From Rubripirellula sp. (GTDB lineage: Bacteria; Planctomycetota; Planctomycetia; Pirellulales; Pirellulaceae), in NCBI GenBank assembly GCA_012270065.1, contig JAAXJB010000039.1, positions 1,341-47,064 on the forward strand: a DNA stretch of 45,724 bases, given 5' to 3'. Under the pieces are notes generated by a model. The model was not told where the DNA came from. It searched no databases and was given only the letters and a program-made list of their open reading frames with translations. Positions 3,328-44,659 of the stretch are shown here, in pieces; position 1 is the first letter of the stretch, and each line of letters starts with the position of its first letter. The position numbers and the translations under genes were made by a program.

Positions 3328-3473
3328 TCGCTCTGCAAGACTCGTGCGTCAGAAAAGGTACCCAACTGCCATCATCATACCTACATATCAACCAGCTCCC
3401 AAAGGCCACCGGCCACGAATGTTGGCCCAGATGTTTCGCAATTCAGGAAAATCACGTCAGGATGGTGGATAAT

Positions 3474-28172: not shown

Positions 28173-28943
28173 CTAACGCCGCAGATTCAACAACTCGTCA
28201 AGCAGTTGCTGGCTGGTCGTGATCACGCGGCTGTTTCCACGATACTGGGTACTTGCCATCACCAACTCGACGAGGTCTTTCCCAATGTCCGTGTTGCTCA
28301 ACTCAAGAGCACCGCCAATCACACCGCCAATGCCATTTTCTCCTGGAGCACCCTGAACGGGCAAACCCGTATTGACCCCCTTGGCGAATACGTTGAGACC
28401 GCGAGATTCGAGACCCACAGGGTTGGCAAATCTTGCCAACTGCAACTGCCCCAGATCACGCGTCACGCCGTTTCCAAACACACCACGCAAGGTACCATCT
28501 TCACCAACCACGAAGCTTGTCAATACACCGGGAGGGCTACCATCCTGACGAGTAGCTGCCAGGCTTGCTTCCTGAGTTGCCAAGCCGGAAACTTGACTGA
28601 AGTCGAGATCGAATTGAAGCGGGTTAACACTCGGTACGCCCACACGATCAATCGCAATGCTGTCGTTGGTTGCCGAAACGAAGTTCCCGTTTCCATCGAA
28701 ATACAACAAACCTGTTCCGACTGCGATGTCTGTTCCCGAAATTGGCTGATTCTCTGCACTGTCGGCATACCATCGATAGATGGTCTGCTCATTGGTCCTT
28801 CCTTCAAGCGTAGCTGTTACCCGTACGTTCAGAGGGACACCCAGAGAGTCGTAAACAATGAAATCACTGACGGCACTCTGACCCTGTGCTTCCTGCAGAA
28901 TTCCAAAGGCGAGGTTTGGTGTTGTCACCTGGCCGACAGAGTT
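28173..28943 (-). pseudogene. flgE: Flagellar hook protein FlgE, C-terminal part (after in-frame stop)
   Basis: These 256 codons continue the flgE frame after a TAA at 28944-28946. They encode NSVGQVTTPNLAFGILQ and then the FlgE core (SAVSDFIVYDSLGVPLNVRV, FDLDFSQVSGLA, DGSPPGVLTSFVVGEDGTLRG) and the C-terminal D0/D1 helix region (LELSNTDIGKDLVELVMASTQ). The last part is needed for hook subunit packing with the N-terminal helix encoded by the other half. The first possible start is GTG 28928, which has no Shine-Dalgarno, so independent translation is doubtful. It is either dead, expressed by readthrough, or the stop is a sequence error. Confidence 0.8.
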
Positions 28944-28946
28944 TTA
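28944..28946 (-). other. In-frame TAA interrupting flgE
   Basis: The minus strand reads GTT TAA AAC TCT GTC in the frame of both flgE halves. No base is gained or lost across the junction. A single change from CAA, AAA, GAA, TTA, TCA or a Tyr codon would restore one 811-residue protein. Confidence 0.85.
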
Positions 28947-30608
28947 AACCCTGAAAGCCGACAGATCTATTTCAAGAGCATTCAGTTCGCCGGTGTTGCT
29001 GACAAAACGAATCGTGCCATCCTGAATGTATCCACCGGGAACCAGGTCACCGCTTTCACCCGGGATATTATTTTCAGATGCGAGAATCGGGTTCTGGGAA
29101 TCAATGATCAGGCTCTGAATACCCGATGCAGACTCGAGAAAGTCAACAAAATCCTGCACGGTCGTGGTCGCGGCAATCTCAAGCTGCTTCGTTCCCAATG
29201 CCCGACCGCCTTTGCGACCGCTGTAACTCAACGTGCCTATTTCGAAAGCATTTTGGTAGGTCAAGCCATCGCGTTTCAGAACATCTGTCAACAGCGTATT
29301 GCTGGTAATCATGGGACCATCAAGATCCACCAGTTTATTTCCTGGTATTGTCAGGTCTGCAATTTCTGCATCTGACTTTGAATCCGTATAGTCGGAACCA
29401 GGAGTAACGGTGTCGACCAGATAGTAGTTGTTTTGGTCACCAGCCAGATTCCGGTAAATCCGTATTTCATCGTACGCAGGAAAACCACTTTCGGGACCCG
29501 GCACGGGTGGCACAGGCAAATTACTCAGAGAAATTCGGCCGTTGACAACGTTTTGCGGCCCGATTAATTCGCTCGGGCGACTTTCAACCTCACCACTCCG
29601 ATGGTAAGTCACCATGTACGAATAGTTTCCAGTCAGAGTGGTTTCATCCAACGGCGTTCCCGACAATGGTGTCGAGCCGTCATCATCGAACGCCCCACCA
29701 GCTGGTGCAGAACCAAGCAGGAAAAAATCACTTCCGTCAGGTCCTGTTCGATAGATGTTGACAGTTGGGTAGTCGCCGGTGAGCTCTTGTGGCAGGTTAC
29801 TGAGTTGGATTCGCCCTCCCGCTCCTACCGTTGAACTTATCGAAACACTGGGCGTTGCTTCGGCGCCGGCCACGTCGACCAATGCGAAGCGGTATTGGTA
29901 GGTTCCGGCAGCCAAGGTACCAACACCACCATTGTTCACGATCACCGCGCCAGCGTCAGAAAGTGGAGCAGCTGCGATGCCAACGCTGGTGGAGTCAGGT
30001 CGTGGAACTTTCGAGTCACCCAAACGACTCGACTGAATCACCTGCGAAATGGTTGCTAGATCACCTTCAGGTGTCAACGTACCCTCAAAAGTGACATTCT
30101 CAGTTGCTTTGGCAACGCTTTCACTACCCAAAGGAACGGAAAGTGGGACCAACTCGGTTTTTTGAAGACGGAACTGTTCGTCGACCCCATACCCCAACAA
30201 ACGCTGTCCAGTAACACTTACCAACTCAGCATCACTATTGAGCTTGAAAATTCCGTTCCGTGTGTAGAGTCGTTCTCCCTCTCCACCCTCAACAATGAAG
30301 AATCCGTCACCTTGAATGGCCAGATCCGATGAATTGCTGCTGATTTCAATCGTGCCCTGATTGTGGTTGGCAGCAATTTCAGCCACCTGAACACCCAAGC
30401 CAATCTGACGTGGATTGATACCACCACTGTTATCCGATGGCCCGGCCCCCAACGAAAGAGTTTGTAGAAACTGGGTTCCAAAGATCACGTCTGACGATTT
30501 GAATCCAACGGTTTGTGAATTGGCCAGATTATTGCCAATCACATCAATCTGCGTTTCCGCAGCATTCAAACCAGTCAGTGCGGTAGTAAGAGCAGATGTA
30601 AGACCCAT
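28944..30608 (-). CDS. flgE: Flagellar hook protein FlgE, N-terminal part (interrupted)
   Basis: This 554-residue reading frame starts with the FlgE rod-like N-terminus (ALTGLNAAETQIDVIGNN, residues 10-27, then LANSQTVGFKSS) and the D1 region with IQGDGFFIVEGG (98-109) and LYTRNGIFKLN. Residues 235-312 and 327-410 are two related inserted domains, each with a Tyr-rich strand, GRI-LSNLP and IYR motifs, probably surface-exposed. It ends at LEIDLSAFRV followed by TAA, before the C-terminal packing domain, so this product alone should not polymerise into a hook. ATG 30608 has GGGAG upstream. It is the last gene of the flagellar run, after flgD. Confidence 0.88.
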   Translation of the reverse strand: MGLTSALTTALTGLNAAETQIDVIGNNLANSQTVGFKSSDVIFGTQFLQTLSLGAGPSDNSGGINPRQIGLGVQVAEIAANHNQGTIEISSNSSDLAIQGDGFFIVEGGEGERLYTRNGIFKLNSDAELVSVTGQRLLGYGVDEQFRLQKTELVPLSVPLGSESVAKATENVTFEGTLTPEGDLATISQVIQSSRLGDSKVPRPDSTSVGIAAAPLSDAGAVIVNNGGVGTLAAGTYQYRFALVDVAGAEATPSVSISSTVGAGGRIQLSNLPQELTGDYPTVNIYRTGPDGSDFFLLGSAPAGGAFDDDGSTPLSGTPLDETTLTGNYSYMVTYHRSGEVESRPSELIGPQNVVNGRISLSNLPVPPVPGPESGFPAYDEIRIYRNLAGDQNNYYLVDTVTPGSDYTDSKSDAEIADLTIPGNKLVDLDGPMITSNTLLTDVLKRDGLTYQNAFEIGTLSYSGRKGGRALGTKQLEIAATTTVQDFVDFLESASGIQSLIIDSQNPILASENNIPGESGDLVPGGYIQDGTIRFVSNTGELNALEIDLSAFRV

Positions 30609-30722: not shown

Positions 30723-31169
30723 TTACCCAGTCTGTATTTCTCTGATGTTTTTAATATCCATCGTCTTTCCACCCACGTGAACTTTGACTGTTCGTGTATC
30801 GTTTTCATCACTTGTCTCAACTGTGATGCGATCAACAATGCCATCAACTGCACTGGAATCCTCTGCCAATCCCTCAACCGTCTTACCAATCAGACTGCTA
30901 GCGGTCACCAATTCCTGGCTTGAAGAGAGTGAAGACAGGGTTTTGGTCAATTGATCGGTTGCTCCAATTTCGCGAATCTGCCCGATCTGTTGGACCATTT
31001 CACTGTTGTCCATCGGATCAAGAGGATCCTGATTCTGCAATTCGCTGATGAGCAACTTCAAGAAATCGTCGATATCAAGTTCGTTGTAATTGCTACTCGA
31101 TTGACTGGCTGTTGCGGTTGTTTGTTGCGCGGCAGCACTCGAACTGGCTGGCTGGCCGATTTGCGACAT
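30723..31169 (-). CDS. flgD: Flagellar hook assembly scaffold FlgD, short form
   Basis: The protein has 148 residues with a Ser/Ala/Gln/Thr-rich N-terminus and the conserved FlgD core DIDDFLKLLISELQNQDPLDPMDNSEMV. FlgD forms the temporary cap on which hook subunits assemble. The C-terminal tudor/Ig-like domains of enterobacterial FlgD (about 230 residues) are absent or reduced to KVHVGGKTMDIKNIREIQ. ATG 31169 has GGGAGAGGA just upstream. It follows fliK and precedes flgE, the usual order for hook genes. Confidence 0.92.
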   Translation of the reverse strand: MSQIGQPASSSAAAQQTTATASQSSSNYNELDIDDFLKLLISELQNQDPLDPMDNSEMVQQIGQIREIGATDQLTKTLSSLSSSQELVTASSLIGKTVEGLAEDSSAVDGIVDRITVETSDENDTRTVKVHVGGKTMDIKNIREIQTG

Positions 31170-31290
31170 GGTCCTCTCCCGAAATTGCAGCATTGCATCG
31201 CGATGCCTCAGTACATCTCTGACAATTCTCTTTTACGTTGAGACAACCGGAAAAAGCGAGAGCAATCATCATGCATGTGCCCCGGATGGA

Positions 31291-32865
31291 TTACAGGTGC
31301 ACATCGATTCCTTCAGCTGGCACTAACTCCACAGGTTTTGATGAAACATCTTGTGAAACATCACTTGAGTTCGTTTCCGACGTTTTCTTCATTGGGTCAC
31401 GTTGCCGATCTCCTGAAAAATTCTGCCAGGGATCATCTCGATCAGATGTGTCGTTGAACCGGGAGTCACTGAATTGGGAGCCACGGTCGTGATCAAGATT
31501 CTCGGTCTCGATCTCAAGTTGCTCGACTTGCATGCCAAATGACTCCAGCTTGGCACGCAAATCAGGAAGGTGCTCACGCAAGGTGGCACTTGCGGCTTCC
31601 GTTTCTGCAACAACTCTCGCCGCTACATTTCGTTGCTGAATTCGCATTTCAACACGCACCGAACCCATTTCTGCAGGGGCCAAACGCAGGCGTATCACCC
31701 CACCCTCTGGACCCAGATGTTGAAATGCTTTGCTCACTCGTTGAATCAGCTTTACGCGTGTTAACGTGTTCGCATTTTCTGCTTTGTTGCTGCTTGACTG
31801 GTTGACAGGTCGATCGCCTACCTTGGTTGCCACTGCAGCCGACGGGTTGAAAGCGGAGTTCCTGCCCACAGCACCCGTGTTGGCAGCCGATCGGGCATTA
31901 CCGGCAGCGCTCGCTGAAACCGTAGAATTCGCAACCGATGCCAACTGCAAAAGACGATTGCCAACGCGATCAGCAGAACGCTCCTGCAAGTCGGTCGGAG
32001 AACTTTCCATGATGGCGGCAGCTTCCAACATTTCAGGGCTGATGGGTATTTTTGCGTTTGAACTCGAGTGCTGTTGGCCTTGCTGAGACGAGATCGATGC
32101 TTTTGCCTCAGGCACACGCTCTGCCCGATGCCGTTGCCGGCGTTGCCGTCTTGTTTCGCCAACGGCTTCCAAAGGCTGCTGTTCTGACTGATCTTCCAAT
32201 GTTGACAAGTCCGCATCCATCTCCTGCTTTTCCGCCGCGCCCCGGTCCCGCTCGGGAAGCACAACGACAGGACTCACTTCGGCTGTCCGGGCTTCCACTG
32301 TTTTTGTCGTATCACGCTGCTTCGACCACCCTTCTTCAACATTCTCAATTGGAACAACGCCTCGTACTTCTTCTTGTTCAACAATGCGATTCTCAACTTC
32401 CGCCAATGACTCTTCAAAATTGGCCTCCGTGGCCAAGACAGTTTCCGGCTCAGCAGTCAGTAATGACTCTGTTTCCTCATCTTCGCGAGATCCGCTCTCC
32501 TGAAACGTTGTCTGTTCAGGCATCTGTGAAGAGACGACCACTACCTCATCTGTCGGTAGATCCTCCCATTGAGGCGCGACACAGTCAGTGTGTTCCTGAT
32601 TCTGATGCTGCGTTTCGGTTTGCACATCTTCTTCTCTGGACTCCGGAGCCACAGGAACTGAATCTTCGACGATTTGCTGCGACTGCTCGTCGATGGGCAC
32701 AATCTTCGCTTCAGACATGCGAGCGAAAACTTCGGCAAAGCCGTCCAGAATCCCTTCAACCGCTGGCTGTTTGATACTGCTGTTGGCAAGCGAACGTAAC
32801 TTCCCACCCGCTAACTCTGTAATGGTAGCATCATGCGCATGGCGAACCGCTTCCAAATCACTCAT
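31291..32865 (-). CDS. fliK: Flagellar hook-length control protein FliK
   Basis: The protein has 524 residues. The first 370 are acidic, Glu/Gln/Ser/Val rich and of low complexity, as expected for the flexible molecular ruler. The conserved C-terminal Flg_hook domain contains GGVIRLRLAPAEMGSVRVEM, AARVVAETEAASATLREHLP and LRAKLESFGMQVEQLEIE. This domain in relatives touches FlhB to switch export from hook to filament. A further 60-residue hydrophilic tail follows. ATG 32865 has GGGGGAG upstream; another in-frame start exists at 32913. It lies between the MotE-like gene and flgD. Confidence 0.9.
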   Translation of the reverse strand: MSDLEAVRHAHDATITELAGGKLRSLANSSIKQPAVEGILDGFAEVFARMSEAKIVPIDEQSQQIVEDSVPVAPESREEDVQTETQHQNQEHTDCVAPQWEDLPTDEVVVVSSQMPEQTTFQESGSREDEETESLLTAEPETVLATEANFEESLAEVENRIVEQEEVRGVVPIENVEEGWSKQRDTTKTVEARTAEVSPVVVLPERDRGAAEKQEMDADLSTLEDQSEQQPLEAVGETRRQRRQRHRAERVPEAKASISSQQGQQHSSSNAKIPISPEMLEAAAIMESSPTDLQERSADRVGNRLLQLASVANSTVSASAAGNARSAANTGAVGRNSAFNPSAAVATKVGDRPVNQSSSNKAENANTLTRVKLIQRVSKAFQHLGPEGGVIRLRLAPAEMGSVRVEMRIQQRNVAARVVAETEAASATLREHLPDLRAKLESFGMQVEQLEIETENLDHDRGSQFSDSRFNDTSDRDDPWQNFSGDRQRDPMKKTSETNSSDVSQDVSSKPVELVPAEGIDVHL

Positions 32866-32920
32866 CTCTGGCTCCCCCCAGTAACGTCCGATAGCGTGGA
32901 CGTCGGGAACCAACCGACGG

Positions 32921-33577
32921 CTACAAATTATCGTTCGTTTCGTTGATCAATGATGAAACTGGCATGCCTTCACCGATCCGCCGCAACACATCTGCAAGGA
33001 TGTCAACATCTGCCGGCGTCGTGAACTCTGCCAATATGTCTTTTCGTGCATCTGTGGACATGGCTTGAAGGATTGTGACAACGTCATCAATTCTTTTATC
33101 GTCATACATTATCAGCAGTTGTTCTTTTGCCTGCTCTGGCTCTAATCCCTGAATCGTACGCTGCACTTCCTGAATACCGGATTCCTCGGCCTCCTGCTTG
33201 AGTTCCTTCAACTCAGTCCTAAATGCTAGCAAGCGATTGCTGAATCGATCCTGATCAGTGCGAAGATCTGCCAACATGATGCTCAGTTCATCTCGAAACT
33301 CCTGCTGGCTTCTCAGCCGGACATCCATGTCGAGGCTTTTCATTTTTCGCTCGTCGAGGATTTCCTCAAAACTTGGCTGTTCGTACTCTTCACTTTGACG
33401 CAAAAACTCTTGAAGGCGGTTTCCAGTAACGTCGATCCCATTGACCAATGCGATCAACTGAACAGCAGTCTTTCGGTTCATCGTTCCTTGAATCAGAAAG
33501 TAACTCAACAAAATGACCTGGGTCAGAACAGTGGCCACACAGAATGCGGCGATTCCCCGGAAGATGTTCGACATCAT
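32921..33577 (-). CDS. MotE-like membrane protein in the flagellar operon
   Basis: The protein has 218 residues with one N-terminal membrane segment (AAFCVATVLTQVILLSYFLI), a long coiled coil (about residues 60-140), and a C-terminal helical region (AKEQLLIMYDDKRIDDVVTI, LQAMSTDARKDILAEF) similar to the MgtE N-terminal/FliG-like helical repeats of MotE. MotE is a chaperone for the stator protein MotC in some bacteria. Here the position between fliJ and fliK matches where MotE-like genes lie in several flagellar operons. No motA or motB is in the window. Identification is by layout and weak similarity. Confidence 0.65.
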   Translation of the reverse strand: MMSNIFRGIAAFCVATVLTQVILLSYFLIQGTMNRKTAVQLIALVNGIDVTGNRLQEFLRQSEEYEQPSFEEILDERKMKSLDMDVRLRSQQEFRDELSIMLADLRTDQDRFSNRLLAFRTELKELKQEAEESGIQEVQRTIQGLEPEQAKEQLLIMYDDKRIDDVVTILQAMSTDARKDILAEFTTPADVDILADVLRRIGEGMPVSSLINETNDNL

Positions 33578-33583
33578 GATTGT

Positions 33584-34036
33584 TTACCGTTGACGTTGGC
33601 GTTCGAGGGCATACTGACGTGATGATACTTCGTCGGCCTCTTCATTTTCTCTTTTCGATTCCAGTGCCCTGAATGCGGCCTCATCGTTTTCCTTCAGTTT
33701 CTCAAAGCGTTTGAGTTCAGCTTCAGCGGCAACGAGTTTCTCTCGTCGTTTTTCCATCTCAACTCGCAATTCGGCAACTGTTGTCTGCAAAGCGTTGATA
33801 TCTGCCTGCAACTGCAGGTCATAGCGTCCGTGTGCGAGCAGCGCGTCAACAGACACATCGCCTTTGCGATTGACGTCATAGGAACTGCGCAAATTGACGC
33901 GTTCACGTTTGATCTCGTCAATCTGGGCATTCACTTTGTTGATGGCCTCATTGGCCTGTCCCAACGAAGCCCCTGCCTCATCACGTTCTTGACGTCGTAA
34001 TTCCAGCAGAACTTTAAATCGAAATTCGATGGGCAA
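33584..34036 (-). CDS. fliJ: Flagellar export protein FliJ
   Basis: This 150-residue protein is almost entirely coiled coil, highly charged, beginning FRFKVLLELRRQERDEA as in FliJ. FliJ forms the central stalk of the FliI ATPase ring and links it to the export gate. The start is TTG 34036, with AGAGG seven bases upstream; no ATG is available nearby. It lies 41 bases after fliI and just before the MotE-like gene. Confidence 0.85.
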   Translation of the reverse strand: MPIEFRFKVLLELRRQERDEAGASLGQANEAINKVNAQIDEIKRERVNLRSSYDVNRKGDVSVDALLAHGRYDLQLQADINALQTTVAELRVEMEKRREKLVAAEAELKRFEKLKENDEAAFRALESKRENEEADEVSSRQYALERQRQR

Positions 34037-34077
34037 AGTTGATCCTCTCGGTCATGAATCTTTGAAAACACATCAAA

Positions 34078-35520
34078 TCAGGTTGTCACGACCCCCGGAC
34101 TACTATCAACCATACTATCTACACCGGCGGCCTGCGCAGAAACACCTCCATTTACGGATGAATTTACAGCCTGAGTGCCGATAAGTTGTGCAAGCATGCG
34201 ATTTGAATCAGGCAGTGGGGTGATTTGACTGGCCTCCTGTTGCAAAAACATATTAAGTGGATCTCTCATGGCGATCGCTGCATCGACCTTGGGATCACTG
34301 CCTTGGCGATATGCTCCAATCGAAATCAGGTCGGCATGTCGCCGGTATTCAGCAAGATGCTGACGGGCCGCGGCGGCGACCTTCAAATCATGCGGGGCAA
34401 CCAGATGCGGTTGCAAGCGACTCAGACTTTGCAAAACATCGATAGGCGGCCAATGTGCGCCTGCTGCCAAATCACGACTGAGAACGATATGACCATCGAG
34501 CAAACCCCGAAGAGTGTCTGCAATCGGCTCATTCTGGTCATCGCCCTCGACTAAGACGCTATAAAAAGCGGTGATGGAGCCACGATCTGTCCGTCCAGCT
34601 CTTTCGACCAGTCTTGGTAACAGATTGAATACGCTGGGCGGATATCCCCGGGTTGTGGGCGGCTCACCAGCCGCCAGGCCCAGTTCCCGTTGTGCCATCG
34701 CGAATCGGGTCACCGAATCAATCAAGAGGAGAACATTCTCACCCTGATCACGAAATGCCTCAGCAATTGCAGTGGCTGTCCACGCTGCGGCCACCCGTTG
34801 TGCGGCAGGGCGATCACTGGTCGCGACGACCACCACACTTCTTGCGAAACCGACTTCCCCAAGAGCACGCTCAAGAAACTCTTGAACCTCTCTGCCACGT
34901 TCCCCGACCATCCCAATCACAATGCGATCGGCATCGGAGCCACGCGCCAACATTCCCAGAAGCGTACTTTTCCCAACGCCAGATCCTGCGAAGATCCCTA
35001 GTCTTTGTCCCTGTCCGCAGGTCAACATGGCATCAATCGCTCGAATTCCGGTCTGCAAAGGAGCATCGATCGCGGGACGTTCCATCGAGTGAGGCGGTTC
35101 ACGCTCCGCATCCACGATTTGCAAATCCTTGGGCAGTGGTTTGCCGTCAACCGGCTGGCCAAAAGCATCAATGACACGACCACACAAGGAAGGCCCCACA
35201 CGCAATTTCAATGTTGTATCGACGAGCCGAACAGAATCACCAGCAGAAAGTGCATTGAGTCGTTCCAATGGTGCAAGAATGGGCTTCACACCACGAAAGC
35301 CAATCACTCGTGAGCGTGAAATCACTCCATCCTGTGATTGCAGCTCGCAAATCGCACCGAGTGGCGCAGTCATGCCCTCGATTTCCACAGATTCTCCTGC
35401 GACTGCTGAAACCCGGCCCCGCACATGCTGGGTGACAGCCCGCCCAATCATCGCTTCTGTCGCCACGGAATCTGGCAACACGGGTGTCACCAGATTGAAT
35501 TCGCTGATTGCGTCATCCAT
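34078..35520 (-). CDS. fliI: Flagellum-specific ATPase FliI
   Basis: This 480-residue AAA/F1-type ATPase energises flagellar protein export. It has Walker A AGSGVGKST (about residues 178-186), the GERGREVQEFLE segment, Walker B NVLLLIDSVTRFA and the TTRGYPPSVF and EGDDQNEPIADTLRG motifs. The N-terminal beta-barrel and C-terminal helical domain are present. A 35-residue Ser/Val/Ala-rich tail extends past the normal end. The start overlaps the fliH stop (TGATG), implying coupled translation of FliH and FliI, which form a complex. Confidence 0.96.
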   Translation of the reverse strand: MDDAISEFNLVTPVLPDSVATEAMIGRAVTQHVRGRVSAVAGESVEIEGMTAPLGAICELQSQDGVISRSRVIGFRGVKPILAPLERLNALSAGDSVRLVDTTLKLRVGPSLCGRVIDAFGQPVDGKPLPKDLQIVDAEREPPHSMERPAIDAPLQTGIRAIDAMLTCGQGQRLGIFAGSGVGKSTLLGMLARGSDADRIVIGMVGERGREVQEFLERALGEVGFARSVVVVATSDRPAAQRVAAAWTATAIAEAFRDQGENVLLLIDSVTRFAMAQRELGLAAGEPPTTRGYPPSVFNLLPRLVERAGRTDRGSITAFYSVLVEGDDQNEPIADTLRGLLDGHIVLSRDLAAGAHWPPIDVLQSLSRLQPHLVAPHDLKVAAAARQHLAEYRRHADLISIGAYRQGSDPKVDAAIAMRDPLNMFLQQEASQITPLPDSNRMLAQLIGTQAVNSSVNGGVSAQAAGVDSMVDSSPGVVTT

Positions 35521-36206
35521 CACTGCAACAACTCCTCGAGTCGATCCAACTGAGCAGTCAGACCTGCTTGAATCTCACCACCTGTTTGCCGCACAATCAC
35601 TTCGTCCCTGGCAATTTTCTCATCCGTTTCGATTCGCGTTTTCTCTGGCAGACCCGGTGTCATGACCATCTTTTCGAATGCCTCACCTGCTTTCGCGAGC
35701 GTTTCAGGATGAATCACAAGCGTCAAACTCACTGCCGTCCTTGTACTCAGCAATGCTTCCTCGGCCCACTTGACCATCAACTCGGGTTCGGCTTCCAACC
35801 TGCGACGGGTGATTTTCTCGACTGCCGCCAAAGACGTTTTGATGAGAATATCCTCGTAGTCCTTCATCCATTCTGCATGTGCATCACGGATTTTCCTGAC
35901 GGCTTCCTGCATCACGCTGGTACTATGCCTGGCCTGCTGTTCCGCCTTTTCCTGAAGTTTCTTGTCAGCGTCGATGGCCGCTTGCTTCAACCCCTCGTCA
36001 TACCCACGTTCCTGAGCAGCTTTTTGAATTCCCGCTACCTCACGTTCCGCTTGAGCAAGCATTTCATGGACCTGCAAACGACACTGTTCAAGACGTGTGC
36101 GTCCCTCATCAGCAAGGTCGCTGAGATTGAAACCTGCGACGGCAGACACTTTTTGCGCGGCGGCTCGCTGCTTGTCACGATCACCTGATTTCAAAACAGT
36201 GGCCAT
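35520..36206 (-). CDS. fliH: Flagellar assembly protein FliH
   Basis: The protein has 228 residues. The N-terminal half is charged helix (VHEMLAQAEREVAGIQKAA, GYDEGLKQAAIDADKKLQEK), and the C-terminal FliH/V-ATPase E-subunit-like domain includes IKTSLAAVEKITRRRLEAEP, SLTLVIHPETL and DEKIARDEVIVRQTGGEIQAGL. FliH anchors and restrains the FliI ATPase. It lies 17 bases after fliG and overlaps fliI by one base. Confidence 0.9.
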   Translation of the reverse strand: MATVLKSGDRDKQRAAAQKVSAVAGFNLSDLADEGRTRLEQCRLQVHEMLAQAEREVAGIQKAAQERGYDEGLKQAAIDADKKLQEKAEQQARHSTSVMQEAVRKIRDAHAEWMKDYEDILIKTSLAAVEKITRRRLEAEPELMVKWAEEALLSTRTAVSLTLVIHPETLAKAGEAFEKMVMTPGLPEKTRIETDEKIARDEVIVRQTGGEIQAGLTAQLDRLEELLQ

Positions 36207-36223
36207 AGATCACAACTCGCTAT

Positions 36224-37537
36224 TCAGGCAGCAGTGGAAACTGGTTTGTCAATTACTTCAAGCGACTCCACCGCAACGATCTCTTTGGCTTCATCAATCT
36301 CGCGCAATTGCAATGCACCAAGTGAATTCATTGATTCACGTACTTTCCGTGATTCTGCCTTCGGCAGGAGTGCAAGTACGGCAGAAGTGACTTGATTAGG
36401 AAGCCCACACAATGCCAACATCGCAACTCTTGCCTGGACCCTGCCAAGCGTCTCGCAAAGATGCTGTGGAGACATTTCGACCAGATGCTGATGAATCGAA
36501 TCCGTGGAAGGGAAGGGCACTGTTTGCTCAGCAGTGTCGGTGTGTTTTGACGATACCGGGACGGGAGCATCCGTAGTCGTGTTTCGTGAAACCAGAGATG
36601 CTTCCCCTCTCTGGTGTTTTCGCTGATTTCCCGAAGGCGAATATTCTCCAACAGCCTGCCAAGAGGTACCCTCAGCAATCCTCAGCCGGGACGTCAAATT
36701 TTCAACCGCCTGCCCTGCTGAAGGGAAGTGACCGGACTGCGTGGAATCGGCATCCCCGGGGGTGGTGCCAAAGGAACCTGTTCGTACAGCAGTCCGTCCC
36801 AGCGTCGAAGCACTCTTTGCCCTGTCTGGCTCCTGCTCTGCTGGCATGGCCGCAAGAATCGCATCCAGGGCACGACGCCCCAGAGTATCACTGAAATCGG
36901 CAGCCCGTGTTCCCAATGACTTCCGAAAATGATCCGCCAACTCAGTCAGTGAATCACGGGGAATGGTTTCAATTTTCCCAATACGCCCGAGCATGTCTTC
37001 CAAACTGCTGCCCAGATGTGGCAAGACTCGGGCTGCATGATCTGGTCTGATCGAAGCCAAAACAGTAGCGACCACCTGCGGTCGTTCTCTTTTCAACAAA
37101 TTGGCCAAGCCCTGTTCATCAACCTGTTCAAGGAAGGCCAATGGGTGGTCATCATCGTTGACTGGAATACCGGAATTCATGCCGCGATTGGGCTCACCCT
37201 GCACGGCACTTGATCGGATGACCCGGGAACCATTTTCAGCCGCGGGTTCCGTTGCACCTGCCGTCAGCACGGGCTTGTTTTTTTCGGGCGTCGGCAACTG
37301 ATTGCGAGAGGCACCTGGTTTCTGAACGGAAATTTTAAAGGCATGCAGAGCCCGTTTCTGTTCGAGCGGATCGACATCTGCCAAGGACATCATCGTTCGT
37401 CGCACCGCCAACTTGGTATCAGCATCGATCTCACCCAGAAGGCTGGCAGCCACTGTCGCTGGTAGACTGCTAAGCACGATTGCGACACGACGCAACATCG
37501 CTTCGCGATCCAATCCCGAGTCCCATGCGTTTGCCAT
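36224..37537 (-). CDS. fliG: Divergent flagellar motor switch protein FliG
   Basis: The protein has 437 residues (usual FliG is about 335). The N-terminal domain (RRVAIVLSSLPATVAASLLG) would bind FliF. The middle domain is clear: HPLAFLEQVDEQGLANLLKRE, then RPQVVATVLASIRPDHAARV. A long polar, poorly conserved insertion of about 130 residues precedes the C-terminal domain (IHQHLVEMSPQHLCETLGRV, VTSAVLALLPKAESRKVRES, NSLGALQLREIDEAKEIV). In the torque helix the usual charged DDR/REVD pattern reads STDSIHQHLVEMS. ATG 37537 has GGGAG upstream. It lies between fliF and fliH, which supports the assignment. Confidence 0.85.
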   Translation of the reverse strand: MANAWDSGLDREAMLRRVAIVLSSLPATVAASLLGEIDADTKLAVRRTMMSLADVDPLEQKRALHAFKISVQKPGASRNQLPTPEKNKPVLTAGATEPAAENGSRVIRSSAVQGEPNRGMNSGIPVNDDDHPLAFLEQVDEQGLANLLKRERPQVVATVLASIRPDHAARVLPHLGSSLEDMLGRIGKIETIPRDSLTELADHFRKSLGTRAADFSDTLGRRALDAILAAMPAEQEPDRAKSASTLGRTAVRTGSFGTTPGDADSTQSGHFPSAGQAVENLTSRLRIAEGTSWQAVGEYSPSGNQRKHQRGEASLVSRNTTTDAPVPVSSKHTDTAEQTVPFPSTDSIHQHLVEMSPQHLCETLGRVQARVAMLALCGLPNQVTSAVLALLPKAESRKVRESMNSLGALQLREIDEAKEIVAVESLEVIDKPVSTAA

Positions 37538-37764
37538 GTGGGGCCACTCCCTCGTGCCTAGCAATACCTCAACAGCTTCCCGAAGGCCAGCATTCCTTTG
37601 CCTTGATCCACGGGAGTACTTCTTGTACCCAAACCTGAGCGTGCATTGGAAGAGGAAATCACATCAGAACCGTGTCCAAAGCGGCATTTAAAAACAGAAA
37701 AGTGGCTTCCTCACGTGAGATATCCAGCAGGGACTCGGCGGACGCAGGATTCGAGAAAAATGCC

Positions 37765-39396
37765 TCAAACGGCGTCACCCACCCATCCACGAATCACATT
37801 GGCAGCCACCTCGGGATTATCCTCTACCAGATGCAGTAATTCTTCCTTGAGCGATCCACCGGTGATGGTCATCCGTTCGGGCTCTTCTTCCGCATCCTGC
37901 TCTGTATGAACTGGAACTGGCATTTCGATTCCAAATCCTTCCTGAAATTCTTTGGGAGTAGCGTTTCCGGTGGATTTGGCTGCTGAACGGGCAACCAGCA
38001 ATGCGACCAGCCCCAGAAAGACAAGAGCCAGTGTCTGCCAAGAGTCAGCCAGCCACGTCAAAGCCTGACTTGTTGCCAATTCCTCTTCTGTTTCTGCAGA
38101 ATGCAATTCGGGAGCATCCCGTACAGTGACCAGAGAGTCAGCAGCCGCTCCCGCTGCTACTTTGGGCAAAAGTGGACTGACGATGTCCTGGATTTTTTTC
38201 TGCGTTGTAGCACGCAGAGCCTCGAGCGTCGCCAAATCAAGCACGATGTCTTTTTTGTCTTTGGTTGGATCAGCGTCCGTGACATTCTTGATGTTGAGTT
38301 GTTCGTAATAGCTGGTTGGCAACATGATCGAGACTCGAACCGATTTCACCTGCAGGTCTGCCAGCTTTGAACTTTCAAACTGCTGGCCTGCGACTCCACT
38401 ACTCTGTCGCTCATCCTCGGTGGTATTGAGCACTTCCAGATCCTTGGAGATGCTTTGGGCCCGGTTACCAATTGCATTTGGATCGGCCCCAGGGACACCA
38501 CTTGGAATTTGCTGGTTACGGGTGGTTTCAACTTTTTTGGAACTGCTCTGCAGATTGGTGGGTTCCGCATCAAACTTCACAGAGGCAAGTTCAGATTCCA
38601 TGGTCGGATCAATCTCAGCAAAAACAGCAATCTGAGCCGGATACTCGACCAGAAGTTTGCGCAACTTGTACTCAATGTGCTTTTCTGCTTCGCGTTGCTT
38701 TGTCAACAAAGGATCCTCGCCATCGGCACCCGTGCTGACTGTGGTACTGTTGGTATCAATCACAACGACATCGTCGGTCGCCATTCCTGCATACGAACCA
38801 CGAATCAATTCCTGAATTGCAAGAATGCGCTGGCGTGGCAAGGCACGCACACCCTCCGGTTGTACCATCACACTCGCTGATTGTGGCATGACACGGGACA
38901 ACCCGATTCGTTCTCCCTGGTCATACTCAACACTCGCCCACCGCACATCCGGAAATTGAGAAATCTTGTTACCCAAGTCTTTCTCTTTGGCATGCATCTC
39001 TCGCGACTTCCTCAAATCAGAGGAATCAAAGGGACTGCTGGATTTGATGGCCTGGTCGACCTCAGTTCGCAAGGCAATCGGCAATCCGGCGGCATCACCC
39101 AAAGCAGCCATGTACGCAGACTTGGATTCCTTGGGGACCTTGATTCGACGTCCCTCCCGCTCCCAGTCATTCAAACCTGCGGCGCTCAACGCGACTTCAA
39201 TGGAGTCCATCTCCTGTTCGCCCATCGAGCGGCCACCAAAAAGGTACTCGGTTGACTTCACATCGGAACCACGCACCAGAAATGCGAGTCCGATCGCAAT
39301 CGCTGTGACCAACATCGCCGCTATGATCCGCGACTGCATGGGCATTGCCAGAAACACCTGACGTGCCTGGTCCGTTGACTGTCTCAGAAAATTCAT
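37765..39396 (-). CDS. fliF: Flagellar MS-ring protein FliF
   Basis: The protein has 543 residues. A first membrane segment (IIAAMLVTAIAIGLAFLV) is followed by the ring-building (YscJ/FliF) domain with AGLNDWEREGRRIKVPKES and the region around RWASVEYDQGERIGL, AMPQSASVMV-like PQSASVMVQPEG, and DDVVVIDTNS. A second membrane segment (TLALVFLGLVALLVA) precedes a cytoplasmic tail ending ELLHLVEDNPEVAANVIRGW, the helix that binds FliG. FliF forms the base ring of the motor. About 230 bases separate it from the fliG start; no gene was seen there. Confidence 0.95.
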   Translation of the reverse strand: MNFLRQSTDQARQVFLAMPMQSRIIAAMLVTAIAIGLAFLVRGSDVKSTEYLFGGRSMGEQEMDSIEVALSAAGLNDWEREGRRIKVPKESKSAYMAALGDAAGLPIALRTEVDQAIKSSSPFDSSDLRKSREMHAKEKDLGNKISQFPDVRWASVEYDQGERIGLSRVMPQSASVMVQPEGVRALPRQRILAIQELIRGSYAGMATDDVVVIDTNSTTVSTGADGEDPLLTKQREAEKHIEYKLRKLLVEYPAQIAVFAEIDPTMESELASVKFDAEPTNLQSSSKKVETTRNQQIPSGVPGADPNAIGNRAQSISKDLEVLNTTEDERQSSGVAGQQFESSKLADLQVKSVRVSIMLPTSYYEQLNIKNVTDADPTKDKKDIVLDLATLEALRATTQKKIQDIVSPLLPKVAAGAAADSLVTVRDAPELHSAETEEELATSQALTWLADSWQTLALVFLGLVALLVARSAAKSTGNATPKEFQEGFGIEMPVPVHTEQDAEEEPERMTITGGSLKEELLHLVEDNPEVAANVIRGWVGDAV

Positions 39397-39478
39397 GACT
39401 ATTCAGATGGATCCGCAAAGAAAATGTATTGGATGCTTGCGTGCTAAAATTGATGCCCTAGTGTGGAATGCCATGCGT

Positions 39479-39796
39479 TCAGATCTGAATCTGCTGTACT
39501 TCACGATAAGCCTCAATCAGCTTATTACGTACCTGCAAAAGCATGCGAAACGCAAGATCCGCTTTTTGAACTGCTGTCAGCACTTCCGCCTCATTGACAT
39601 CACCACCGGTCAGCAGGGAATGCACCATGTCATTCGCATCCATCTGCATCGAATTGACGTCCTCGACTTCCCTGCTGAGCAGTTTGGCGAATTCATCAAT
39701 TCCGGATTCAAAATCTGCTTTCCCTGCTTTCGATGATGCTATACCAGCGAGGGTTTCAGGACTGGTCGGAGGCTGGATTCCGTTGATTGGACGCAT
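39479..39796 (-). CDS. fliE: Flagellar hook-basal body protein FliE
   Basis: This small 105-residue protein links the MS-ring to the rod. The conserved C-terminal part is present: DANDMVHSLLTGGDVNEAEV, LTAVQKADLAFRMLLQVRNK and LIEAYREVQQIQI. Length is standard. It starts at ATG 39796 and lies between flgC and fliF, its usual position. Confidence 0.94.
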   Translation of the reverse strand: MRPINGIQPPTSPETLAGIASSKAGKADFESGIDEFAKLLSREVEDVNSMQMDANDMVHSLLTGGDVNEAEVLTAVQKADLAFRMLLQVRNKLIEAYREVQQIQI

Positions 39797-39910
39797 GTTT
39801 CAGTTCGCTTCCGACCTTGCCAGATCAGGTTTTCTGATTCGAATCTCGCGTTAATGCGATACTGCACTCATGGATGCAAGTACAGACTCAACCTTCGAGC
39901 CGTAAGAAAA

Positions 39911-40330
39911 TCAGGCCAGAATTGTCAGAGTCTCGCGACTCAGATTCTTGGTAATCTCCATCACACCTACGTTTGCCTCATACGCACGTGTGGATTCAAG
40001 GGCATCTACCATTTGTGTCGTCAGGTCAATATTCGGGTACGCAACATATCCCTTCCACTTGCCTTCTTTGATTGCGAGTGGGTGTTGGGGCTGATAACGG
40101 TACAGTGGCTCGGCATCACTGGATCTGATCTCTTCCACCTTCACACCCGACGCACCTTGCGTTGACAATTCATCGTTCGTCTGGAAGACAACTTCTCTGG
40201 CCCGATAAGGTTCGGCCTCACCTTTCTCGTTTTTTAACGTCGATATATTCGCAATGTTGCCCGCAACGGCATTCAAACGAGTTCGTTCTGCGACAAGCGC
40301 TGAGGTGCTGATATCAAGTGCACGTAACAT
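39911..40330 (-). CDS. flgC: Flagellar basal-body rod protein FlgC
   Basis: The proximal rod protein has 139 residues. The N-terminal rod motif is LDISTSALVAERTRLNAVAG followed by NIANISTLKNEKG; the middle has PYRAREVVF; the C-terminal helix is YVAYPNIDLTTQMVDALEST then RAYEANVGVMEITK. ATG 40330 is chosen over TTG 40336 because AGGA lies six bases before it. It follows flgB by about 65 bases. Confidence 0.95.
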   Translation of the reverse strand: MLRALDISTSALVAERTRLNAVAGNIANISTLKNEKGEAEPYRAREVVFQTNDELSTQGASGVKVEEIRSSDAEPLYRYQPQHPLAIKEGKWKGYVAYPNIDLTTQMVDALESTRAYEANVGVMEITKNLSRETLTILA

Positions 40331-40394
40331 GATCAATCCTGTTCTTTCTCACCTGAAGCATCATAAAATCCGACATTGAATTGTACTTCTATTC

Positions 40395-40793
40395 TCAAGC
40401 CCGTTCAGTAATTGCAGCTCTCAACAGCGCAAACTGGCTTCGCATGGTTGTGATTGCCAACGCATGCATGTGTTCATTCTTTGCAACCTCAGATACCTGT
40501 TGCTCCAACGACACGTCACTCTCATCGTGGTAGACCACCTGCTCCATCGCATCGCGAGGCCCTGATCGGATATCATCTCTTGTCAGTGGCTTTCCCGAAT
40601 CAATCGCTTTCTTGTGCAGATCAATGGATTCAGCAAGGGCATTTTGGAAATCCCCAACATCCAGATCCTTGGCTCGATAGCCCGGCGTATCAAGATTGGC
40701 CAAATTCCCCGCGAGAAGTTCGTGCCGTTTCTGTGAAAACGTCAGCGTTTGCTCGAGCGCCGGAATCGTTGTCGTATTGAAAATGCCAAACAT
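40395..40793 (-). CDS. flgB: Flagellar basal-body rod protein FlgB
   Basis: The proximal rod protein has 132 residues. N-terminal rod motif: LTFSQKRHELLAGNLANLDT with PGYRAKDLDV; C-terminal half: VSLEQQVSEVAKNEHMHALA and LRAAITERA. Length is standard. It is 27 bases downstream of the HATPase-like gene and heads the structural flagellar genes. Confidence 0.94.
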   Translation of the reverse strand: MFGIFNTTTIPALEQTLTFSQKRHELLAGNLANLDTPGYRAKDLDVGDFQNALAESIDLHKKAIDSGKPLTRDDIRSGPRDAMEQVVYHDESDVSLEQQVSEVAKNEHMHALAITTMRSQFALLRAAITERA

Positions 40794-40820
40794 GGAACAA
40801 CCCTGCCAGTGCCGTTTGTG

Positions 40821-41243
40821 TTACGCCGCGATACGGTCAGTACCACTTTGTCGCCGAAAAGTCATGGTCACCGCAGCCCCGCCTTGCGGACAGTTCTGCC
40901 ATAACAATTCCACTCCCAATGCCGCTGCTGCGATTGGCGTACGTTGTTGACGATTCTCGATGTCACAACCCGTATCGGCCAGTTCCAACTCCATTCCCTT
41001 GGCGGTCTGGCAAGCTGTAATGGTCAAATCGCCGCCTTGAGGCATTTGCTGCAATGACTGATTGACCAGTGCCCGGATCAGTTCAACCGTCTGCTGGGAA
41101 TCAGCCGGCACTTCGAGAGAAGTATCGATGTCCAATTCGAGGCAAATCGCTGCCTCATGTGCAATCAACAGAGGCGCCGTTACCGATTCGATAAGAACGG
41201 CTAAAGATTGGCACTGACTCGGATCGATCCAATGATCTGGCAT
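40821..41243 (-). CDS. Stand-alone histidine-kinase-type ATPase-like protein (degenerate)
   Basis: The protein has 140 residues with no membrane segment. The C-terminal 90 resemble the ATP-binding domain of sensor kinases: an N-box-like segment (IRALVNQSLQQMPQGGDLTI), a strand (KGMELELADTGCDIEN) that matches the G1 box DTG, and a terminal GGAAVTMTFRR as in kinase ends. There is no phospho-acceptor histidine domain, and the expected G2 box GTGLGL is replaced by AAALGVELL. It could be a decayed kinase half, an anti-sigma-like regulator, or a structural relic. ATG 41243 has GGGAG upstream. It is 27 bases before flgB, so co-expressed with the rod genes. Confidence 0.6.
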   Translation of the reverse strand: MPDHWIDPSQCQSLAVLIESVTAPLLIAHEAAICLELDIDTSLEVPADSQQTVELIRALVNQSLQQMPQGGDLTITACQTAKGMELELADTGCDIENRQQRTPIAAAALGVELLWQNCPQGGAAVTMTFRRQSGTDRIAA

Positions 41244-41281
41244 GGTACGCTCCCGATTTGTTCGGTGCAGCAGTCAAAATG

Positions 41282-41295
41282 AACGAAAGTTCGTT
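41282..41295. promoter_or_regulatory. Dyad upstream of the HATPase-flgB run
   Basis: AACGAA-AG-TTCGTT lies about 40 bases before the HATPase-like gene's start codon, in the 268-base gap that should contain a flagellar promoter. No clear sigma-28 or sigma-54 promoter match was found in this gap. Confidence 0.3.
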
Positions 41296-41414
41296 TGGCA
41301 TATCAGTTTTACGCTGATCAATGCAAGGCAAATTCTTCAAATTCCGATTTGCTATCATTGCATTTCAAGTCTCCGGCGTCATTCATGGAATTCCACCCCG
41401 GACTGCAAGACGCA

Positions 41415-41440
41415 GGACCATAGCTCCGGACCATGGCTCC
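41415..41440. repeat. Tandem 13-mer duplication
   Basis: GGACCATAGCTCC (41415-41427) is followed directly by GGACCATGGCTCC (41428-41440), differing at one base. It lies in the gap between the FlgN-like and HATPase-like genes. Confidence 0.5.
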
Positions 41441-41511
41441 CGCCACTTGAGACACCAGTGATCGGATTGCTCAAACCTTTTGTGAAAGCAGAGGTTTCAT
41501 GCTAGACATGA

Positions 41512-41961
41512 TCAATCACTGGAAAGGTCGAGAGTTCCTCCACTGTTGACTTGAATCGAATGGTCAGCATAACCAGACACCGCCTGCCACCCAGAGTCCA
41601 CGCGTTCCAGCCGCTGGCGTAATTCTTCACGGTTGTGGCTCAATTTTGCCTCACACTCAGCTTCTATCGCCAACACTTCAAGGTTCATTTTTTCACACTC
41701 ATCCTGCTGTTTCCTGCACCTTTCCCGCATGGAATCACTCTCCCAGACTCTGGTTTGAGGATCATCAGACTTTGCGGCACGCAGTTTTTCCCCCAGCTCA
41801 ACGAGTTGATTCAAAGGCTGTTGTTTGCGGGAAAGCAGCCGCATCAGGTCACTCATATGCCCCTTCTCAATGACCGTCAATTGCTCCTGACCCATCCTGA
41901 TCAATTGGTTCAGAATTTCCCACCTCTGCTGTACCAGATCAGCAAGTTGCTTACCGTTCAT
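41512..41961 (-). CDS. FlgN-like flagellar export chaperone candidate
   Basis: The protein has 149 residues, mostly helical: LADLVQQRWEILNQLIRMGQ, EQLTVIEKGHMSDLMRLLSR and KQQPLNQLVELGEKLRA, then a charged coiled coil. Length, helical content and the spacing of the first two helices fit FlgN/FliT-type chaperones, which guard hook-associated proteins before export, but there is no diagnostic motif. ATG 41961 has GAGG nine bases upstream and lies 19 bases after the TPR gene stop. The frame extends upstream into the TPR gene without similarity. Confidence 0.6.
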   Translation of the reverse strand: MNGKQLADLVQQRWEILNQLIRMGQEQLTVIEKGHMSDLMRLLSRKQQPLNQLVELGEKLRAAKSDDPQTRVWESDSMRERCRKQQDECEKMNLEVLAIEAECEAKLSHNREELRQRLERVDSGWQAVSGYADHSIQVNSGGTLDLSSD

Positions 41962-41980
41962 TTCTGCATCCTCGGTTGGA

Positions 41981-44659
41981 TCACGCTTTTTGCTTTTCAA
42001 AGTCCTGGATAATCCAATCCAGCAATTGCTGCCATCCTTCCCTGTCATAGCGGGTCGTTTCCGCAAATTCGGGATCAGACTCCGCAGGAATCTGTTTCAG
42101 CATCTCGCTTGCCTGCCGGAGCAGGATTTCAAATTCACGATCATTCCCCAATTGCCTGGCACAATTCGCACGGCCCAAAATGGCCTCGAGGGCGATTGGC
42201 TGACCAATGTACAAAGCTTCGATGCTCTGATAGAGATCTGCGGCCTCTCTGCACTTGTTCATTGCTTTTAAAACATCTGCCTCGAACAGCAGGCAATTTC
42301 TCTGCATTGCCTTGTCTGTTTTCGACAAATTCTGTTCTTCATCGAGCATCGCAAGGTATTGGCTCAAGCGTCGGAAAGCCGCCAGCCCCTTTTGCAAGTG
42401 CATGTCTGCTTCCCTGTTGGATGCGCGCTGAGCCGCGCTCAAGGTGTCAGGCAACATGGCCTCCATGCGAGGCAGCTCTGATGCCATGACATGCGTCCTC
42501 GCAATGTAGTAGGCGTTCCTTTTGGAACGTCCATCATTGTACTCATCCCACCAACGTTGATCAGCGACTTCCATACGCCGAATTGCCGACTTCAAAATGG
42601 GCTGATTATCACGCAGCATTTTCAAACGATCTTCCGGATCTGCCTGCTCTGCCTTCAAGTAGTTCTGATAGCCCAACTCATAGAGCAGTGATCCAAGTGC
42701 ATAGAGAGAATCCTGCCATTCGGCACTCTCGGGCTTGAGATCGGGCGTTTGGTCATCCGGTTCCCGACCTTCACTGTCGACATTCTGACGTAGCAACGAA
42801 CGTGCCTTATCACTATCACCAGACTCCGCATAGGCCAACGCACCGTAGTAGCGTGCAGCGTATCGCTGTGGATCCTTTCGGTACTCTTCGATACACCGCT
42901 CAAAAGCATTGACTGCTTCTTCGGGCTTACCCACGGCAAGCAGGGCTTTTCCATAGGCAATCAATCCCTGTGATTGTCGACTTTTGTCCTCCTGGCGAAG
43001 GTAGGGTTCAAGAAGCCTGATACTCTGCGAAAAGTGCTTGCCCTTCTGGTAGGCATCGATGGCTGCCCAAAGAGTAGGTATGTACTCCTCGCCATTGAAT
43101 CGCAATCGCGCCGCTTCCGCGAATGCGTCTCCCGCGGCGCGGTAGCGCTGACGCACCACAACAGCAGTCTCATCCGAAACCTTGCCATAGAAATTGGTAC
43201 CATCCTTCAGAGTCTTTTCAGCCCATTCTTGATAACCCTTGCCCTCCTGTACCAATGCTTCACCTTGATCGAACACTGGTGGCAATGTGCGAGCAGCATT
43301 GATCGCAGCTTGATACTCATCTGCCCTACGCAGCAGGTTCAGGGCTTGACCGATTCGTGCATTGAATTCGCGAAAAGACAATAATTCATGGTCATAACCA
43401 TCCCGTGTTCCAATTTCCCCCATGAGATAACGGATAGCCTGCGCCACCTGCTGGCCCTCTTTGTTCCTGGTCAACAATTCAATTTCCTGAAGCCCGCTCA
43501 CAATCTCTGCAGAACCAATCTGACCAGAACCGGTGGCTTGATCCCGGCGAACAACGTCATGAAATGCATTGATCGCCCCCGTGACATCACCCTGCATTAA
43601 TTTTACACGTCCGATCCACAATCCAACGTCACTCGATTTTTCCGAGGTCTGGTTCAGCGCGTTGAGTACCTGCAGTGCATTTGCCAATTCCACCGATACT
43701 TCCTGACGCTGATTTTCATCAACCTCATCATTAAACTGGGCCAACAAACTGGCCTCCGATTTCAGTTTTTTGATATTCGCAACGGTGCGAAGAAAAGTAG
43801 CCCGACTCTCAAGCGGATCATCTTCTGTCTGCTGTTTCTGATGTTCTGATAACGCAGTTTTCAAATCGTCCCAGTATCCCAGTTCCATCAGGATCTTGAT
43901 TCGCAGATTACTTGCGTCTTTCCTGGCAGACAGATCCAGCCCAGGGTCAGCCAGATACTCGTTAATACTTGCTAAAGCATCCTCCTGCTGATCTTTTTCA
44001 GCGCGATATTGCGACTCGGCAATCATCGGCAGCAATTCTCGCCTCAGCAGCGGCTCACTCTCAATCGCCTGATTCAAATTGATAACGGCATCATCAAAAC
44101 GCCCCAAATGGAAATGTGTCTCACCGATGACCCGGTAACCCTGAGTACGACGCCCAGGCGGAAACCCATGTTCACGAGATAGTTCCAGATGTGGAACTGC
44201 TGAAAAATACAGGTTGCGTCTTTCGCGAGGTGTTGGTGCTCTTTTGGCCTCAGCGGCTCTTCCAACCCCGATCAAAAAGTCCCGCAAACGGATCAAATCC
44301 AATCGCTCAAGACGAATCTGGTCCAACGCTGCCTCTCGCATTCGCTGCGCATCAACATCTTCATCAGACGTATCCAGAGGCATTTCGAGTGGCTCGATTG
44401 GCGAATCTGCAGGTTCCAATTCTGCAAGCTCAGCCAGTTTTCCTGCCACAATGGGTCGGCCGTCAACAAACTCTCGTGAAGCCAAACGCAACAACGACTC
44501 GGGCTCAGTGACGTCTGTTGTCCACCACATGGATAACAGAACCGCAAAGCCACCGATCGATGCCAGCGCAGCACCAAGCAGCAAGCCAATCGTGACCAAA
44601 TCACGATTCACTGGTTTTTTGCTATTCAGCTCGTCTTCTGCATCTTCTTGATCAGCCAA
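41981..44659 (-). CDS. Membrane-anchored TPR protein
   Basis: The protein has 892 residues. A short cytoplasmic N-terminus (MADQEDAEDELNSKKPVNRD) is followed by one membrane segment (TIGLLLGAALASIGGFAVLL) and a long helical domain of TPR-like repeats, for example YRVIGETHFHLGRFDDAVIN, GLIAYGKALLAVGKPEEAVN and YGALAYAESGDSDKARSLLR. The bulk probably faces the periplasm. TPR domains usually scaffold protein complexes; no enzyme motif is seen. It starts at TTG 44659 with GGGAGG nine bases upstream, a strong signal. It lies 19 bases before the FlgN-like gene, at the head of the flagellar run, so a flagellar role is possible but not shown. Confidence 0.8.
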   Translation of the reverse strand: MADQEDAEDELNSKKPVNRDLVTIGLLLGAALASIGGFAVLLSMWWTTDVTEPESLLRLASREFVDGRPIVAGKLAELAELEPADSPIEPLEMPLDTSDEDVDAQRMREAALDQIRLERLDLIRLRDFLIGVGRAAEAKRAPTPRERRNLYFSAVPHLELSREHGFPPGRRTQGYRVIGETHFHLGRFDDAVINLNQAIESEPLLRRELLPMIAESQYRAEKDQQEDALASINEYLADPGLDLSARKDASNLRIKILMELGYWDDLKTALSEHQKQQTEDDPLESRATFLRTVANIKKLKSEASLLAQFNDEVDENQRQEVSVELANALQVLNALNQTSEKSSDVGLWIGRVKLMQGDVTGAINAFHDVVRRDQATGSGQIGSAEIVSGLQEIELLTRNKEGQQVAQAIRYLMGEIGTRDGYDHELLSFREFNARIGQALNLLRRADEYQAAINAARTLPPVFDQGEALVQEGKGYQEWAEKTLKDGTNFYGKVSDETAVVVRQRYRAAGDAFAEAARLRFNGEEYIPTLWAAIDAYQKGKHFSQSIRLLEPYLRQEDKSRQSQGLIAYGKALLAVGKPEEAVNAFERCIEEYRKDPQRYAARYYGALAYAESGDSDKARSLLRQNVDSEGREPDDQTPDLKPESAEWQDSLYALGSLLYELGYQNYLKAEQADPEDRLKMLRDNQPILKSAIRRMEVADQRWWDEYNDGRSKRNAYYIARTHVMASELPRMEAMLPDTLSAAQRASNREADMHLQKGLAAFRRLSQYLAMLDEEQNLSKTDKAMQRNCLLFEADVLKAMNKCREAADLYQSIEALYIGQPIALEAILGRANCARQLGNDREFEILLRQASEMLKQIPAESDPEFAETTRYDREGWQQLLDWIIQDFEKQKA

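What the first reader, a model, noticed from the sequence alone, without database searches (positions are those of the whole stretch)
28173..30608. flgE split by one in-frame TAA with both halves intact
The two parts of the hook protein are in the same frame, separated only by TAA at 28944-28946, and all FlgE domains are otherwise present. The second half has no Shine-Dalgarno before its first start (GTG 28928). Hook assembly needs the N- and C-terminal helices in one chain. So this is a fresh nonsense mutation (non-motile strain), an assembly error, or efficient UAA readthrough or suppression, which would be novel.
Basis: partly seen in the sequence, partly recalled or inferred. Interest (0 to 1): 0.7.

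Follow-up and report, generated by a model that had tools for sequence, protein, structure and literature searches.

The report
Hook gene broken by one stop
In this one draft genome of a planctomycete bacterium, the flagellar hook gene carries a stop codon that no relative examined has at that place, most likely a very recent loss-of-function mutation or a sequence error, and not a new way of reading genes.

Summary
In detail: flgE on the minus strand (30608 to 28173) is an 811-codon frame broken only by TAA at 28944-28946. The front part has the rod and D1 domains, the back part the D2 and C-terminal domains. "Fresh nonsense mutation or sequence error" holds; readthrough finds no support. Among 46 distinct junction sequences of this and related genomes, 45 have a sense codon there (nine residue types) and only this genome has a stop. 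TAA is an ordinary terminator here (20 of 109 long ORFs, flgE's own included), two release-factor-size frames exist, and none of 40 tRNA genes found reads UAA, though that list is probably incomplete. The back half is as conserved as in intact relatives, so the stop is very young, false, or bypassed. It is the only clear mid-gene stop among 106 genes matched with a relative, and the other flagellar genes searched show none. Two other genomes of the family carry private flgE breaks elsewhere in the gene. I rank a recent real mutation first and a sequence error second; only reads or motility data can decide. Interest is low.

The parts
28944..30608 (-). flgE front part, 554 aa (N-terminal rod motif, D1, an insert with two related repeats, start of D2), ending in the internal TAA
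28944..28946 (-). in-frame TAA, codon 555 of an 811-codon frame, private to this genome among the relatives examined
28173..28943 (-). flgE back part, 256 sense codons plus TAG: rest of D2 and C-terminal D1/D0; strongly conserved
28926..28928 (-). GTG, first possible restart after the TAA; only a 3-nt Shine-Dalgarno-like match before it
30723..42066 (-). upstream flagellar gene cluster, context only (FlgD, FliK, FliJ, FliI, FliH, FliG, FliF, a FlgC-like rod protein, FlgN by Pfam/NCBIfam; three genes unassigned); no mid-gene stop seen against relatives

Best explanation
The TAA is a very recent, real nonsense mutation in flgE, private to this strain or population. Translation stops at codon 555 and yields a 554-residue FlgE fragment. 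The fragment keeps the N-terminal half of D0/D1 but lacks the rest of D2 and the C-terminal D1/D0 helix, so no hook should polymerise and the cell should make no filament. Shown: the stop, its absence in the relatives examined, intact surroundings, strong conservation of both halves. Inferred: that the base is real in the cells, and the non-motile phenotype (from FlgE in other bacteria).
For:: of 22 genus genomes 16 have a flgE match, this one included; 15 of 15 others have no stop inside the match, 14 with open frames of 813-860 codons and one (G018, 595) whose contig begins inside the gene with foreign bases; 45 of 46 distinct junction sequences have a sense codon, of nine residue types; only this genome has a stop. 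(six full-length close relatives): back-half dN/dS of window pairs 0.013-0.020, of relative pairs 0.004-0.027 (one pair without a value); 46 private synonymous codons against 2 private residues at otherwise invariant sites, so the back half was selected as protein until very recently; of 106 genes matched in 200 kb, flgE is the only clear mid-gene stop; no stop inside the rod-type, flagellin-type, FlhA-type and MotA/ExbB-type matches of this genome; two other family genomes carry private flgE breaks at other places, as sporadic loss would give.
Against: One nonsense base in a draft of 122 contigs can equally be an assembly, sequencing or strain-mixture error. No reads and no second genome of the same species were available. 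No other flagellar gene found shows decay, which fits a very young mutation but also fits an error.
Confidence: 0.55

Rival explanations
1. The stop is not in the organism: a consensus, assembly or strain-mixture error in a draft genome put one wrong base into an intact flgE.
For: The genome is a draft of 122 contigs, with a run of N in the gene just outside the window. The stop is private. Both halves look fully selected. The other flagellar genes searched are intact. The two other family genomes with a broken flgE are also drafts, of about 560 and 150 contigs.
Against: flgE is the only clear mid-gene stop among 106 matched genes in 200 kb, so the assembly is not generally error-rich. Coverage and base quality could not be seen.
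Confidence: 0.38
2. UAA is read through or suppressed efficiently enough to make full-length FlgE.
For: Both halves are in one frame and both remain strongly conserved; a back half long untranslated would have decayed. The other flagellar genes found are intact.
Against: The stop is not shared by any relative examined. TAA ends 20 of 109 filtered ORFs of 200 aa or more in the 200 kb checked, flgE's own included, so general suppression would extend many proteins. None of 40 tRNA genes found has the UUA anticodon, although one search scored only 150 of 283 candidates and common anticodons such as tRNA-Gly(gcc) are missing from the list. Release-factor-type frames of 371 and 354 codons are present. 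A very recent mutation or an error explains the same conservation.
Confidence: 0.04
3. Ribosomes restart at GTG 28928 and the two pieces assemble as a split hook protein.
For: A GTG follows 15 bases after the stop and the rest is open.
Against: Only a 3-nt SD-like match (10 of 18 other starts tested do no better). The back piece lacks the N-terminal part that carries the export signal (recalled). The 14 genus copies not cut by a contig end are single chains.
Confidence: 0.03

Closest known systems
Flagellar hook protein FlgE (intact planctomycete orthologues such as L063 and L070, and solved FlgE 3a69/5jxl)
   Same: The four FlgE-type Pfam domains are met across the two parts. The back part aligns with residues 174-402 of 3a69 and the front part with 3-149 of 3a69 and 4-146 of 5jxl. 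Frame length 811 codons, as in six close relatives, without gaps.
   Different: One in-frame stop at codon 555.
Nonsense alleles and young pseudogenes of single strains (general knowledge)
   Same: Private single stop, neighbours intact, the gene otherwise unaltered.
   Different: No motility record or reads to show that it is real.

Membership tests
FlgE (hook protein) | N-terminal rod motif, D1, D2 and C-terminal FlgEFG domain in one frame | tested here: met
   single frame, apart from the TAA
FlgE (hook protein) | one uninterrupted chain | tested here: not met
   TAA at codon 555; continuous in 14 of 15 other genus copies, the 15th cut by its contig end
Programmed stop-codon readthrough | stop conserved at the same place in relatives | tested here: not met
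   45 of 45 other distinct junction sequences have a sense codon; the two other breaks in the family lie elsewhere
Programmed stop-codon readthrough | protein crossing the stop is made | not testable with these tools
   no proteomic data
Reassigned or suppressed UAA | TAA avoided as ordinary terminator | tested here: not met
   TAA ends 20 of 109 filtered ORFs, flgE's own included
Reassigned or suppressed UAA | a tRNA that reads UAA | tested here: inconclusive
   none among 40 tRNA genes found, but only 150 of 283 candidates were scored and some common anticodons are missing from the list
Young pseudogene / nonsense allele | private disabling change, no relaxed selection yet | tested here: met
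Young pseudogene / nonsense allele | change confirmed by reads | not testable with these tools
   no reads available

The most novel reading that the evidence does not exclude
This lineage makes full-length hook protein by efficient readthrough of an ordinary UAA codon. The continued strong conservation of the back half would then be due to translation across the stop.
Probability: 0.04. Interest if true: 0.6.

Novelty: already known. Interest (0 to 1): 0.1.

Why it matters
It matters little beyond annotation. The gene should be recorded as flgE with an internal stop, and flagellar motility should not be predicted for this genome without a check. As a caution, a clean split of a strongly conserved gene in a draft genome is most cheaply explained by a young mutation or an error when no relative shares it.

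Tried and rejected
Conserved or programmed readthrough was rejected: no relative examined has a stop at this place. Ribosomal frameshifting was rejected because both parts are in the same frame, so a net shift of zero would be needed. A second hook gene that could take over was not found in this genome: the back half has one strong match, the other (2.8e-11) being a 270-codon frame, and four rod-motif matches were found, flgE among them. Decay of the whole flagellar system was not seen. The stop flagged in flgD rows lies upstream of the conserved flgD start. A scan of viral contigs for the back half found no relative.

That flgE breaks more often than other genes was considered. Of 76 flgE places in 75 of 149 family genomes, three are interrupted inside a contig (G000, G120, G162); three more with short frames (G117, G138, G043) reach base 1 of their contigs by their coordinates. 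Controls: FliI, 116 places in 113 of 149 genomes, none with an open frame under 435 codons; ProRS, 139 places in 139 of 149 genomes, seven short, all partial matches, four of them within bases 1-5 of a contig and three not checked. These controls are biased: their cut-off of 1e-100, against 1e-60 for flgE, could hide copies split by a frame change. With three events this is only a hint. Rows (10; 4) flagged with stops but with a full-length open frame, and one short contig-end row, were taken as alignment overrun and not inspected.

The first junction table was wrong for minus-strand loci, which my script read in the wrong orientation; it was redone for 64 loci and only that is used.

Papers: one search (FlgE + premature stop codon + readthrough) found 0 papers; of searches I saw the listings and abstract starts only. 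Passages were seen in PMC10956519 (none tells of a flgE stop) and PMC5660449.

Full report
What is there. The minus strand of 30608-28173 is an 811-codon frame interrupted once, by TAA at 28944-28946. The front 554 residues match Flg_bb_rod and the FlgE/F/G D1 domain; the back 256 match FlgE_D2 and the FlgEFG C-terminal domain. NCBIfam FlgE models are hit by both parts in complementary ranges. Against solved FlgE, the front part covers residues 3-149 and the back part residues 174-402 of 3a69, so the break falls near the start of D2 (domain borders recalled). The front part holds two related repeats, at about residues 231-313 and 323-412 (self-alignment).

Whose genome. The window lies in a 6.99-Mb draft of 122 contigs. 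Close relatives in a named collection are Rhodopirellula, Rubripirellula and other Planctomycetota; 10 of the 15 loci are labelled metagenome-assembled. The organism itself is not named by the tools.

Relatives. In the genus set, 16 of 22 genomes have a flgE match, this one included; six have none. The other 15 show no stop inside the match; 14 have open frames of 813-860 codons. The 15th (G018, 595) does not reach its contig start: its first bases are not flgE and read like a sequencing adapter (adapter identity recalled). Over 64 loci, 46 distinct junction sequences were compared: one stop (this genome) and 45 sense codons of nine residue types. The stretch is among the more variable of the protein (1.5 variants per column at 551-570 against 1.19 overall, seven sequences). 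Three of the window's 13 private positions, the stop among them, lie within six codons here; an intact relative (L075) also has three of its 13 there, so the cluster reflects a variable loop.

Family. With the back half as query, 75 of 149 genomes give 76 places. Interrupted inside a contig are G000, G120 (a TAA at another site) and G162 (a frame change further upstream), read. So breaks of flgE recur but are not shared. Control genes: FliI, 116 places, none with an open frame under 435 codons; ProRS, 139 places, seven short, all partial. The stricter cut-off of these controls could hide split copies.

Age of the stop. Six full-length close relatives were used; the partial L064 was left out. 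Back-half dS to the window is 1.2-2.4, near saturation, so the ratios are rough. dN/dS of window pairs is 0.013-0.020 in the back half and 0.025-0.035 in the front half; relative-relative pairs give 0.004-0.027 and 0.028-0.067 (one back-half pair without a value). The window has 46 private synonymous codons in the back half against 2 private residues at otherwise invariant sites; in the relatives these are 15-48 and 0-6. A back half left untranslated for much of that branch would have gathered many more residue changes (inference). So the stop is very young, false, or bypassed.

Is the region error-rich or the flagellum decaying? Of 148 filtered ORFs in 200 kb of G005, 106 matched in 200 kb of this contig. 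Three were flagged: flgE; one with a stop near the start of the match (taken as a start-site difference, not inspected further); and one broken at a run of N in the assembly. In reverse, 108 of 142 matched and six were flagged: five with stops within about 51 residues of the match start and one in a 113-residue ORF of doubtful coding status. In the flagellar cluster next to flgE no mid-gene stop was seen against relatives; the stop flagged in flgD rows lies upstream of the conserved flgD start. Flagellin-type (3), FlhA-type (1), rod-type (4, the flgE front part among them) and MotA/ExbB-type (9) matches in the genome show no stop inside. FlgK, FlgL, FlhB, FliP and others were not searched one by one.

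Readthrough. TAA ends 20 of 109 filtered ORFs of 200 aa or more, flgE's front part included (TGA 71, TAG 18). The 40 tRNA matches carry no UUA anticodon (the tRNA-Leu written 'taa' reads UUA codons). The list is probably incomplete: one search scored 150 of 283 candidates, and no tRNA-Gly(gcc), for instance, appears. Two release-factor-size frames exist (371 and 354 codons). Nothing found points to suppression. The restart GTG at 28926-28928 has a 3-nt SD-like match, but 10 of 18 other starts tested have no more.

Consequence. A Campylobacter flgE deletion was non-motile and made no flagella, and FlgE substitutions in Salmonella can abolish flagella (passages of PMC5660449). A fragment lacking the C-terminal half should not form a hook (inference).

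Verdict.

Noticed in passing
L076 (G120, bases 1937-4393) and L077 (G162, bases 1833-4254): Two other family genomes carry private breaks in flgE, one an in-frame TAA and one a frame change, each at its own site. Whether flgE breaks more often than other genes is open.
   Followed up: partly
window 28944-30608 (minus), residues about 231-412: The FlgE of this group carries an insert with two related repeats of about 85-90 residues; close relatives have the same frame length, and the solved 402-residue FlgE has no room for it.
   Followed up: partly
L064 and L005 (G018), first 40 or so bases: The contig that holds this relative's flgE begins with bases that read like a sequencing adapter (recalled) in front of the gene.
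   Followed up: partly
G019: A 93% complete genome of the same genus has a FliI match but no flgE match, which may be a gap or a diverged hook gene.
   Followed up: no
G040; L078: A one-contig genome of the family has two flgE copies, with frames of 876 and 783 codons.
   Followed up: no
L112 about 1230-1340, just before the window start: A run of N interrupts a methyltransferase-like gene, so the assembly has a gap or masked stretch beside the window.
   Followed up: no
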